Shown piece by piece: positions 23,140 to 26,041 of a DNA stretch of 64,000 nt. The stretch comes from Haloarcula mannanilytica. Its GTDB lineage: Archaea > Halobacteriota > Halobacteria > Halobacteriales > Haloarculaceae. The position numbers were made by a program, and so were the translations under genes. Within the stretch, counting starts at the first letter, position 1; each line of letters begins with the position of its first letter. Location of the stretch: NCBI RefSeq assembly GCF_005406125.1, contig NZ_BIXZ01000001.1:1-64000 (forward strand), read 5' to 3'. A model generated the notes under the pieces. It saw only the letters and a list, made by a program, of their open reading frames with translations, made no database searches and was not told where the DNA came from.

Positions 23140-23292
23140 TCACGGAAGTTCGTAGACGGCAATACCGGTATGCCCACACTGGGGACACGCGTCAGTCTCA
23201 GTCTCCTTCGCGATGGTCATTCCACACCGCCGGCATTCCCGATACACCGTCTTCTCGTGCCTGAACAACCCCCGAAACCAGTCGCCGATCAT
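23140..23292 (-). CDS. Small zinc-ribbon protein coupled to TFB
   Basis: A 50-residue open frame starts at an ATG that overlaps the stop of the TFB gene (ATGA). It encodes two CxxC knuckles, CRRCG (residues 20-24) and CPQCGH (36-41), spaced as in a zinc ribbon. The N-terminus MIGDWFRGLFRHEKTVYREC is basic and amphipathic. Translational coupling with TFB suggests a role beside it, perhaps contacting DNA or RNA polymerase, but this is inference. Similar tiny zinc ribbons are common in haloarchaea. Confidence 0.7.
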   Translation of the reverse strand: MIGDWFRGLFRHEKTVYRECRRCGMTIAKETETDACPQCGHTGIAVYELP

Positions 23293-24227
23293 CCGTCTTC
23301 GGCGAGGAACGCCGTGAGTCGGTCACGATGACTCCGAACCGTCGCCGCCGACACGTCTGCCGCGTCTGCGAATGCCAGTTGCGTCGGTGGGTCAACCATG
23401 GACGATGCTGCGACCTCGAGACAGGCCGCTGCGAAGCCAGCGGGATGAGTGCCACTACTCACACCCGCTTCGTGGGCTCGGGTAGCGAACTGTCGTGCTC
23501 GCTGTTCCACTCTGGCAGGCAGGTCGAACTTGCCGGCGATTGACGGAATGAACGCAACCGGTGACTGCGGTGGGACGGGAAGTTCGAGTTCAGCGTTGAG
23601 TGTTCGATAGCCATTCTCAACGCTATCTACGTCGACAGGAGCAACGGCTGCAACTTCCGCCAGGGTTCGTGTCGTTTCATTCAGGCGGCACGTCGCGTAC
23701 ACGCTCGCCGCCGCAATGGATTCGATTGAGCGACCCAGCAGTAGGTCACTGTCCTGTGCGGTTCGAAACAGCGAGCTCGCCTGTTCCCGCAGTGATTTGG
23801 ACAGGTCCAGATCGCCACTGATCCGTGCGATTTCGGCCAGTCCGGTCGCGAGGTTGCGTTCGGCTTTCGACTGCCACTGTGCCCTGCTGTGTTCCCGTCG
23901 GAGACGACTGAGTTGGCGCTGTTTCTTCCCCGACAGAGTGTTCCCCTTCGCATCCCGCTTGTAGCCGATCTCTGTCGAAAGCCCCCGATCGTGTCTCGTG
24001 TCCGTAAGCGGCGCTCCGGTTCGTGCTTTTTCGCTATCCTCCTCGGCGAATATCCGCGGCCCACGACGGTCCAGGCGACAACTTTCGAGGACAACGCCGC
24101 ACTCACGACAGGTGATTTCACCGCCGTCCGTATTGAGGCGACTACCGCACTCCGGACAGGTGTCTGCTGCAATCGTTCGACCGCTCGATTCGTCGAAGCC
24201 ATGTTCGTAGATATCTCTCGAAGCCAT
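23289..24227 (-). CDS. tfb: Transcription initiation factor TFIIB (TFB)
   Basis: The 312-residue protein carries an N-terminal zinc ribbon (CPECGSRLN and CRECGVVLE), the B-finger/reader region with DRRGPRIFAEEDSEKARTG, and two cyclin-like repeats. It recruits RNA polymerase to TATA/TBP complexes. Haloarchaea have several TFB paralogs that select different promoter sets; this one lies in mobile DNA and may serve element genes. The ATG at 24227 (MASRDIYEHGF) is preferred because it sits 25 bp from a leader motif also found before the ArdC-like gene. The spacing and ATGA overlap link it to the small zinc-ribbon gene. Confidence 0.9.
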   Translation of the reverse strand: MASRDIYEHGFDESSGRTIAADTCPECGSRLNTDGGEITCRECGVVLESCRLDRRGPRIFAEEDSEKARTGAPLTDTRHDRGLSTEIGYKRDAKGNTLSGKKQRQLSRLRREHSRAQWQSKAERNLATGLAEIARISGDLDLSKSLREQASSLFRTAQDSDLLLGRSIESIAAASVYATCRLNETTRTLAEVAAVAPVDVDSVENGYRTLNAELELPVPPQSPVAFIPSIAGKFDLPARVEQRARQFATRAHEAGVSSGTHPAGFAAACLEVAASSMVDPPTQLAFADAADVSAATVRSHRDRLTAFLAEDG

Positions 24228-24251
24228 CTGTGAGTACGAGGCTACGTCTGG

Positions 24252-24281
24252 CTGGCCCCGCAACCTTCAGGGGGTGAAAAA
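24252..24281 (-). promoter_or_regulatory. Leader motif of the TFB gene
   Basis: On the plus strand this reads CTGGCCCCGCAACCTTCAGG followed by GGGTGAAAAAAC. It is nearly identical to the sequence at 26064-26094 and sits at the same distance (about 24 bp) from the following start codon. It contains a possible small stem from CCTTCAGG. It is a candidate operator or 5'-leader element shared by the two genes. Confidence 0.5.
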
Positions 24282-24296: not shown

Positions 24297-24629
24297 TTAC
24301 TCGTCTTGGTAGCCAGCAAAGGCTGCCATTCGACGCACCGCCGTTTCGGTCACACCTTCTGTAATCCGAGCAACCGCTTGTTCGATATTACTGTTTCTGA
24401 GCGAGACGACTGCCCACGGAGCAACGAACGACTGTCAATCGAGTCGTCCTTCAACGAATGAATCCGCGAGCGATATCGACTCATCGTACTCTTTCGTCGA
24501 GATTCCCAGAGCGATGTACTGCTCGCCAGCAAACGGATGGGTTTCGTCGCTGATGACGAGATACGGTCGGCGTGGTGTGTTCCCGAACGGATCCGACGCG
24601 ACGACGACAGTGCCTCGGCGGTGCATCAT
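24297..24629 (-). pseudogene. PemK/MazF-like toxin with an in-frame nonsense codon
   Basis: The reading frame starts with MMHRRGTVVVASDPFGN, typical of the MazF/PemK fold, and runs for 110 codons to a TAA at 24297. It is interrupted by a TGA at 24435-24437. After that stop the same frame continues with QSFVAPWAVVSLRNSN and AVRRMAAFAGYQDE, the normal C-terminal part of the family. A single CGA-to-TGA change explains the break. A functional protein would be a ribosome-independent mRNA interferase; the truncated 64-residue product is probably inactive. The ATG overlaps the antitoxin's stop. Confidence 0.75.
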
Positions 24630-24988
24630 TCGTCGGGTTGCTCGGCGTCGAGATCAGGAAGGTCCGAATCCCAATCCGGGTTCTGGTCGTAGTAGTCTCC
24701 CTTGAACTGGTCCGCGACAGCTTCCAATCCTATTTCGCTGGCCGTGTGCGCATCGTATGCCTCGACGTTGATAGCCCAGTACTTGCCTTTGTGTCGGACA
24801 AACCCACGCTGTTCGAGTCGGCAAAGCGTCGTTCCGACGCTCCCACGGGGAATGTCCAGTTCCTCAGCAAGCTCACTCGCACGGAACCCGAGTTCGGGGT
24901 GGCTGGCTAGAAACTCGAGGATCTGCCGTCCGTTGGTGTCCTCATCGGGCAGATCATTCGGGTGGTAACTCTCGAAATCAACAGGTAT
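24626..24988 (-). pseudogene. Antitoxin gene of the PemK pair lacking a start codon
   Basis: A 120-codon frame encodes DFESYHPNDLPDEDTN, then a winged-helix region (FRASELAEELDIPRGSVGTT with LCRLEQRGFVRHKGKYW) and an acidic tail, matching antitoxins paired with haloarchaeal PemK-like toxins. At the position expected for the start, the codon is ATA (24988), and no in-frame ATG, GTG or TTG lies upstream before non-coding sequence. Loss of the start by an ATG-to-ATA transition is the simplest reading. Non-canonical initiation at ATA cannot be excluded. Confidence 0.65.
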
Positions 24989-25004
24989 TGTAACGGTATG
25001 TAAC
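24984..25004. promoter_or_regulatory. Direct repeat at the toxin-antitoxin promoter
   Basis: Two tandem boxes, GGTATTGTAAC (24984-24994) and GGTATGTAAC (24995-25004), overlap the start of the antitoxin frame. They are likely operator sites for autoregulation by the former antitoxin. Confidence 0.4.
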
Positions 25005-25099
25005 AGTATGCCACTAGACGTAATTACAATGGGGGGCTGAGATGATCGAATCGAAGTTAGGACTCGAAGCGGTGATGCGTCTTTTCGGTGAGGCAGTGG

Positions 25100-26041
25100 T
25101 CACCTGCCTTGGCACGCTCTAATTGCTTCGATTACCTCGGTTACGGTTCGACTGATTCGGTCAAGACGGTCCAGAATCTTCTCCGGTTCGTCAGACTGCC
25201 ACGCGGCCAGATACAGCGCTGACCCGCTCATGTCCAGGCCGAAGTGACGACCAACGACGTAGGCGACCGCTTCGGCTTCGACTTCGCGTTTCTCTCGTTC
25301 AGGTTTCTCGGTGACACCGTTGTGAAGCAATGTGTGTGCGTACTCGTGGACCAGGACTGCAGCCATCGCGGCAGTGCTCTCCTGAGCTTTGATTTCGATT
25401 TCGGCGTCGCCCTCGTCTTCGTCGTCGGCCGATCGACAGATGCCTTCCGCAGCGCCATGGTCCCACTCCGCGGCATCAACGACTGCTACTTCCACTCCCA
25501 GCGTGTCCGCAGCTCCAGTGACTGCTGGAAACAGATCGGTGGCGTCTCCACGTGCCGCCGTTTCCAGTTCTGGAAGGGGCTCACCCTCAGTCTGGGAGAT
25601 ATCGAAGACAGGAACGGGTTTGAAGGCGACAGGTCCCTCCGACCACTCTTCAGGTGGCGTTTCGTCGTACTCACAATCAGTGTTCTCGTGGTAGTTTGGT
25701 GAGTTGCCGCAGTCTGGACACTGCCTGGCGATGATTGGTGCCCAGATCCAGATAGCCTGTTCGCCGTCCTGGACCTGTCTGTCGAACTCCTCTTGCCACG
25801 TCCGGTAGCCTGCGACTTTCGTCGCTTCTGGACACTGTCGTGCGATCAGCAGTGTGTTCCGATACGAGTAGTCATGGAACTGACTCTGGACATCCAGCCA
25901 CTGCTGGAACTGTTGGCTGGATTTCGCCGCTTCGACTTCGGTGACCAACTCCTCCGCCCACTGTTCGATCGTCCTGTGCATCTCGTCATTGCGAGTGTCC
26001 GTCGTCTCGAATGTCACTCGCGTCTTCGTATCAGAAGCCAT
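25100..26041 (-). CDS. ArdC-like anti-restriction protein with zinc-peptidase domain
   Basis: The 313-residue protein opens with an ArdC-type ssDNA-binding region (HDYSYRNTLLIARQCPEATK followed by YRTWQEEFDRQVQDGEQAIW). A zinc-finger-like insertion (CPDCGNSPNYHENTDC) follows, then a metallopeptidase signature HEYAHTLLH near residue 235 with further Glu residues after it. ArdC proteins protect incoming plasmid DNA from restriction during conjugation, which fits the type IV secretion genes in this region. The insertion with Cys/His is a haloarchaeal variation. The start is preceded by the shared leader motif at 26064. Confidence 0.75.
   Translation of the reverse strand: MASDTKTRVTFETTDTRNDEMHRTIEQWAEELVTEVEAAKSSQQFQQWLDVQSQFHDYSYRNTLLIARQCPEATKVAGYRTWQEEFDRQVQDGEQAIWIWAPIIARQCPDCGNSPNYHENTDCEYDETPPEEWSEGPVAFKPVPVFDISQTEGEPLPELETAARGDATDLFPAVTGAADTLGVEVAVVDAAEWDHGAAEGICRSADDEDEGDAEIEIKAQESTAAMAAVLVHEYAHTLLHNGVTEKPEREKREVEAEAVAYVVGRHFGLDMSGSALYLAAWQSDEPEKILDRLDRISRTVTEVIEAIRACQGR

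What the first reader, a model, noticed from the sequence alone, without database searches (positions are those of the whole stretch)
24297..24988. PemK/MazF-type toxin-antitoxin pair killed in both genes
The toxin frame is intact except for one TGA (24435-24437) where the family would have Arg, after which the normal C-terminus continues in the same frame. The overlapping antitoxin frame is intact but its first codon is ATA with no in-frame ATG, GTG or TTG upstream. Toxin loss followed by antitoxin loss is a plausible order. The neighbouring genes are intact, so this pair has lost selection.
Basis: partly seen in the sequence, partly recalled or inferred. Interest (0 to 1): 0.65.

Follow-up and report, generated by a model that had tools for sequence, protein, structure and literature searches.

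The report
Recently silenced haloarchaeal toxin-antitoxin gene pair
A two-gene toxin-antitoxin unit in a salt-loving archaeon carries a premature stop in the toxin and a lost start codon in the antitoxin, both apparently recent; about half of its relatives also carry broken toxins beside intact antitoxins, so this is a clear example of a common kind of gene decay.

Summary
On the minus strand, antitoxin codon 1 is ATA (24988-24986) where 39 of 42 close haloarchaeal loci have ATG; no ATG, GTG or TTG lies in frame upstream or inside. The toxin has TGA (24437-24435) where most relatives have Arg, and family sequence continues after it. Best reading: a PemK/MazF-like toxin with a winged-helix antitoxin, silenced in both genes. 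In haloarchaeal short-leader reporters UUG is undetectable and GUG weak, so AUA should be near null. The decay is recent: since the split from the sister species the antitoxin was under strong purifying selection (omega about 0.10; neutrality rejected) and the toxin largely so (about 0.2). 'Lost selection' therefore holds only for the latest part of the branch. Toxin-first decay fits the relatives: 17 loci have dead toxin frames, nearly all beside an open antitoxin, and no intact close toxin was found alone. Stop/start overlap may couple toxin to antitoxin translation, so the order here is not proven. A Haloferax plasmid shows the same double loss (ATC start, toxin gone) with relaxed antitoxin evolution. 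Sequencing error is unlikely but untestable here. Ordinary biology, useful as a clean decay series.

The parts
24626..24988 (-). Antitoxin pseudogene (or start-codon mutant): 120-codon winged-helix frame, MarR_2-like, open from the ATA slot to TGA
24986..24988 (-). ATA in place of the ATG start codon (ATG in 39 of 42 loci, GTG in 1, ATC in 1)
24297..24629 (-). Toxin pseudogene, PemK/MazF-like frame with one internal TGA; its ATG overlaps the antitoxin stop codon
24435..24437 (-). Premature TGA at residue 64 of about 109; CGN (Arg) in the sister ortholog and most relatives
24989..25023 (-). Probable promoter/operator: TTAC words at -35, -15 and -5 (10-bp phase), overlapping a TATA-like element; conserved across the family
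23289..24263 (-). Intact neighbour: transcription factor B (TFIIB) gene; ortholog in the same position in G035
25100..26041 (-). Intact neighbour: ArdC-N/M78-peptidase-like protein; ortholog in the same position in G035

Best explanation
This is a recently decayed type II toxin-antitoxin locus. The ancestral unit was a leaderless or short-leader bicistronic mRNA. Its first gene encodes a winged-helix (MarR-like) antitoxin that probably binds the 10-bp-phased TTAC words over its own promoter. Its second gene encodes a MazF/PemK-like ribonuclease started from a codon overlapping the antitoxin stop. In the window lineage a CGN-to-TGA change truncated the toxin at residue 64 of about 109, and an ATG-to-ATA change removed the antitoxin start. 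AUA is not expected to start translation usefully in haloarchaea, so the antitoxin is effectively off, and by translational coupling any toxin translation would fall too. Shown here: both lesions, their absence from nearly all relatives, purifying selection before the lesions, and the recurrence of toxin loss. Inferred: no translation from AUA, no activity of the 63-residue toxin fragment, operator function of the TTAC words, and toxin lost before antitoxin.
For: Start slot ATA against ATG in 39 of 42 loci. TGA against CGN in most relatives. Syntenic ortholog pair with open frames in G035, same order TFB-toxin-antitoxin-ArdC. Joint codon model with shared branch lengths: window antitoxin omega 0.10, omega = 1 rejected (delta lnL 8.15); window toxin about 0.2, omega = 1 rejected (delta lnL 3.6), i.e. 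constraint until recently. Natural comparison: the ATC-start, toxin-less antitoxin of Haloferax alexandrinus (L046) has omega 0.51 against 0.086 background (2 delta lnL 8.3) and a damaged TTAC word. Published Haloferax reporters: UUG gives no detectable product, GUG is 5-37 times weaker than AUG with or without a short leader (PMC4574771). Overlapping gene pairs were strictly coupled in 9 of 9 H. volcanii cases (PMC6728339). No tRNA-Sec reaches the gathering score in the genome.
Against: The antitoxin frame and its TTAC words show no decay beyond the start codon, which would also fit a gene still in use. No read data or second strain of the species is available. The toxin family is only remotely linked to MazF by sequence and its structure prediction failed (pLDDT 45). 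Toxicity of any close family member is untested. AUA itself was not among the codons tested in the reporter papers read.
Confidence: 0.84

Rival explanations
1. Only the toxin is dead; the antitoxin is still made at a low level from the ATA (or a nearby non-AUG codon) and acts as a solitary autoregulator or as protection against related toxins.
For: Antitoxin constrained on the window branch; TTAC words intact; frame fully open; antitoxins at other toxin-dead loci are still constrained (tip omega 0.13, omega = 1 rejected); an intact paralogous pair exists on contig C13.
Against: Even UUG is undetectable in haloarchaeal short-leader reporters (PMC4574771); the Haloferax ATC-start copy evolves with relaxed constraint; constraint on the window branch is explained equally well by recent loss; window-only changes at conserved sites (residue 56 to Cys, residue 96 Glu to Lys) do not suggest careful preservation.
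Confidence: 0.08
2. Sequencing or assembly error in one or both codons; the pair is intact.
For: Draft genome of 33 contigs, no reads available; the rest of both frames is undamaged and was constrained.
Against: Two independent substitution errors, exactly at the start codon and making a stop, within about 550 bases and with no other frame damage, are improbable; other loci show the same kinds of lesion, including TGA at the same toxin codon (L067) and ATC at the same start slot (L046).
Confidence: 0.05
3. The TGA is recoded or read through and the toxin is still produced.
For: The frame after the TGA is intact and family-like.
Against: No tRNA-Sec above the gathering score; stops in the family differ in type and position (TGA at residue 64 twice, TGA at 19, TAG at 47, TAG at 71), which is random nonsense, not a programmed site; toxin made without antitoxin should be harmful.
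Confidence: 0.03

Closest known systems
MazEF / PemIK type II toxin-antitoxin systems (PF02452 toxins)
   Same: Two-gene operon, DNA-binding antitoxin first, small toxin second with overlapping genes; the toxin-family profile matches M. tuberculosis MazF6 (E 0.001) and keeps Arg-Pro and Thr positions that correspond to B. subtilis MazF R25/P26/T48.
   Different: The antitoxin is a MarR-like winged helix, not an AbrB-type MazE; toxin similarity is below Pfam's cut-off for the close relatives scored; this copy is broken in both genes.
MazF-hw of Haloquadratum walsbyi
   Same: A MazF endoribonuclease from a haloarchaeon, with a seven-base target (reviewed in PMC5408214).
   Different: No sequence comparison could be made here; orthology is not claimed.
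wHTH + PemK/MazF pair on Natronomonas pharaonis plasmid PL131 (NP_RS13420/NP_RS13425)
   Same: Same gene order and families; antitoxin about 50% identical; the toxin is annotated PemK/MazF and passes PF02452 (28.2 bits).
   Different: Intact frames; a more distant subfamily.
Solitary antitoxins and solo TA genes (PMC2701414, PMC3874152)
   Same: Antitoxin genes without functional toxin are common in genomes.
   Different: Here the antitoxin has also lost its start, and the sequence of decay steps can be seen across relatives.

Membership tests
PemK/MazF toxin family | Profile match to PF02452 at or above the curated cut-off | tested here: inconclusive
   Close relatives: 10 of 19 match at E up to 1, best 4e-4; example 15.4 bits against a cut-off of 23.1. 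The more distant N. pharaonis homolog passes at 28.2 bits.
PemK/MazF toxin family | Sequence relation to a solved MazF | tested here: met
   Family profile against PDB: the only hits below E 0.01 are MazF6 chains (E 0.001-0.003), aligned over profile 13-97.
PemK/MazF toxin family | Conserved RNA-binding/catalytic Arg-Pro and Thr | tested here: met
   R20, P21 and T44 invariant in the family alignment; compare R25, P26, T48 of B. subtilis MazF in PMC8634880. The window fragment keeps them but loses S66, P70, W71 and R83. Correspondence is by sequence alignment and spacing, not by structure.
PemK/MazF toxin family | SH3-like MazF/CcdB fold | tested here: inconclusive
   AlphaFold2 on a 3-sequence alignment gave pLDDT 44.9; not used.
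Type II toxin-antitoxin pair | DNA-binding antitoxin gene immediately upstream, overlapping or adjacent | tested here: met
   MarR_2 31.0 bits over a cut-off of 27; stop/start overlap in most intact relatives.
Type II toxin-antitoxin pair | Toxin inhibits growth; antitoxin neutralises by binding | not testable with these tools
   No experiment on this subfamily found in the searched literature.
Pseudogene | Disrupted frame or lost start relative to intact orthologs | tested here: met
Pseudogene | Relaxed selection after disruption | tested here: inconclusive
   Over the whole window branch antitoxin omega is 0.10 and toxin about 0.2, not significantly raised; the test cannot see a loss confined to the last part of the branch. 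Relaxation is seen in the parallel case L046.

The most novel reading that the evidence does not exclude
The antitoxin is translated from AUA in a haloarchaeon, giving a low-level solitary winged-helix regulator that keeps its phased-TTAC operator after the toxin has died: an AUA start codon in natural use in this group.
Probability: 0.06. Interest if true: 0.6.

Novelty: new member of a known kind. Interest (0 to 1): 0.3.

Why it matters
The locus is a recent stage in a decay series that the relatives lay out: intact pair, toxin with one stop, frameshift or deletion beside an open antitoxin, then antitoxin start loss and drift. About half of the evaluable loci carry a damaged toxin and almost none a damaged antitoxin, so the family could be used to measure how toxin-antitoxin units die and whether orphan antitoxins are kept for a purpose. 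The 10-bp-phased TTAC words give a directly testable operator.

Tried and rejected
Viral contig scans with the antitoxin and with the toxin alignment found no relatives. AlphaFold2 of the toxin family failed for lack of alignment depth, so no fold search was run. A single-gene codon model gave omega 20 for the window toxin; it was rejected because synonymous sites are saturated against the outgroups and changes were mis-assigned between the two sister branches; the joint two-gene fit replaces it. Selenocysteine recoding was considered and rejected. RNA structure around the start was unremarkable (z 1.16). The association of antitoxin damage with toxin death is only suggestive (3/17 against 0/21, p 0.08).

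Full report
What is there. On the minus strand the window holds an overlapping gene pair. The first frame (24988..24626) encodes a 120-codon winged-helix protein that passes Pfam MarR_2. The second (24629..24297) encodes a small PemK/MazF-like protein. Codon 1 of the first frame is ATA, and neither the open stretch upstream to 25099 nor the frame itself contains ATG, GTG or TTG. The second frame has one TGA at 24437-24435 and continues afterwards in family-like sequence.

Relatives. Close relatives were collected from whole haloarchaeal genomes, named genome contigs and plasmids. Reduced to 42 non-redundant loci, the antitoxin start slot, followed by Pro-Val-(Asp/Glu), is ATG in 39, GTG in one, ATC in one (L046, a Haloferax alexandrinus plasmid) and ATA only in the window. 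In these counts L114 has its ATG in place but the frame is shifted further downstream. The toxin codon that reads TGA in the window is CGG in the sister-species ortholog G035 and CGN in most others, so a C-to-T change in an Arg codon is the simple reading. The organism was placed in Haloarculaceae because one genome of the same family contains a contig of exactly the length of the Natronomonas pharaonis plasmid PL131; the genus is not named by the tools.

Context. The TFB gene downstream and the ArdC-N/M78-like gene upstream are intact and under purifying selection against G035 (omega 0.136 and 0.127). G035 has the same order TFB-toxin-antitoxin-ArdC with open frames. G026 has both neighbours but other sequence between them and no pair, so the pair is variable cargo at this site.

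Recurrent toxin death. Of 42 loci, 21 have a toxin with a usable start and an open frame. Seventeen have a dead toxin frame: in-frame stops in the window, L067 (TGA at the same codon as the window), L068, L110 and L112; frameshifts in L062 and L076; truncations in L116, L079, L113, L114 and L045; deletions in L044, L046, L077, L111 and L069. Two have lost the toxin start (L048 reads ATA; in L055 the overlapping stop/start is changed so that both the toxin start and the antitoxin stop are gone). One has a C-terminal frameshift (L047) and one ends at a contig edge (L059). Antitoxin start loss or frameshift is seen in only three loci (window, L046, L114), all with dead toxins (3/17 against 0/21, p 0.08). 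A reciprocal search with the toxin found no intact close toxin without its antitoxin; the only orphan was a fragment in G063. Toxin-first decay is therefore the common route. Sampling by antitoxin query biases the first count; the reciprocal search is the control for that.

Timing. Pairwise antitoxin divergence from G035 is dN 0.046, dS 0.64. In a joint codon model in which both genes share branch lengths, the window-branch antitoxin omega is 0.10 (95% upper bound about 0.28; omega = 1 rejected by 8.15 log units) and the toxin omega about 0.2 (upper bound about 0.66; omega = 1 rejected by 3.6 units); backgrounds are 0.086 and 0.137. Read as a mixture of constrained and neutral time, at most about a fifth of the branch can have been neutral for the antitoxin and about three fifths for the toxin (own arithmetic from those bounds). 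The lesions are recent, and 'lost selection' describes only the latest period. These numbers allow but do not prove toxin-first order.

Does ATA kill the antitoxin? In Haloferax reporters with short or no leader, UUG gave no detectable product and GUG was 5-37 times weaker than AUG (PMC4574771); 6% of leaderless H. volcanii transcripts start with GUG and these are weakly expressed (PMC4983044). AUA was not tested in the papers read. The Haloferax L046 locus is a natural comparison: the toxin is gone, the start is ATC, one TTAC word is damaged, and its antitoxin evolves at omega 0.51 against 0.086 (2 delta lnL 8.3; not different from 1). So an Ile codon at this slot goes with loss of constraint in the one case old enough to show it, though loss of the toxin could also contribute there. 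Strict translational coupling of overlapping genes in H. volcanii (9 of 9 pairs, PMC6728339) means that the ATA may also silence the toxin. For this reason antitoxin-first loss is not automatically lethal, and the order cannot be deduced from toxicity alone.

Is it a MazF pair? By sequence the link is remote but consistent: PF02452 matches in 10 of 19 members, weak; a match over the cut-off for the N. pharaonis relative; MazF6 as the only PDB profile hits below E 0.01; and invariant Arg-Pro and Thr that line up with MazF R25/P26/T48. Structure prediction was uninformative. Toxicity is untested, so 'toxin' and 'antitoxin' are inferred names.

An extra feature. Upstream of the start slot 38 of 42 loci have two TTAC words exactly 10 bp apart, in two fixed geometries (-5/-15/-35 or -6/-16/-26), overlapping a TATA-like element. 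This looks like the antitoxin's operator (inference). The window copy keeps -5, -15 and -35.

Verdict.

Noticed in passing
window 24989-25023 and the upstream regions of 42 loci: TTAC words phased at exactly 10 bp (38 of 42 loci have two such words 10 bp apart) in two geometries over the promoter/start; a probable operator of the winged-helix antitoxin.
   Followed up: partly
L055 (G235), antitoxin stop/toxin start overlap: The overlap reads CTGCTG, so the antitoxin stop and the toxin start are lost together; the antitoxin frame extends to 148 codons.
   Followed up: partly
L048 (Haladaptatus pallidirubidus plasmid), toxin start: Toxin start slot reads ATA; the annotated CDS instead starts at an internal GTG, leaving out the invariant Arg4.
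   Followed up: partly
L067 (G216) and window 24435-24437: Two distant lineages carry TGA at the same toxin Arg codon; L068, sister of L067, has CGA there and a different stop, so these are independent events.
   Followed up: yes
G000:C13:53416-54177 (L006): An intact paralogous pair (winged helix 132 aa + MazF-like 118 aa, about 40% identical) elsewhere in the same genome.
   Followed up: partly
L008/L080 (G035) toxin: The sister-species toxin is open but has changes at conserved sites (F14S, R19H) and a somewhat raised omega (about 0.25), so it may be impaired by missense.
   Followed up: partly
L114 and L115 (G063:C1:921625 and 789411): Toxin gene split: an N-terminal piece beside a frameshifted antitoxin and the remaining toxin part about 130 kb away, suggesting a rearrangement inside the toxin gene.
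   Followed up: no
window 23140-23292 (-): A 50-codon small protein with paired cysteines overlaps the end of the TFB gene; conserved next to TFB in G035 and G026 (74-78% identity).
   Followed up: no
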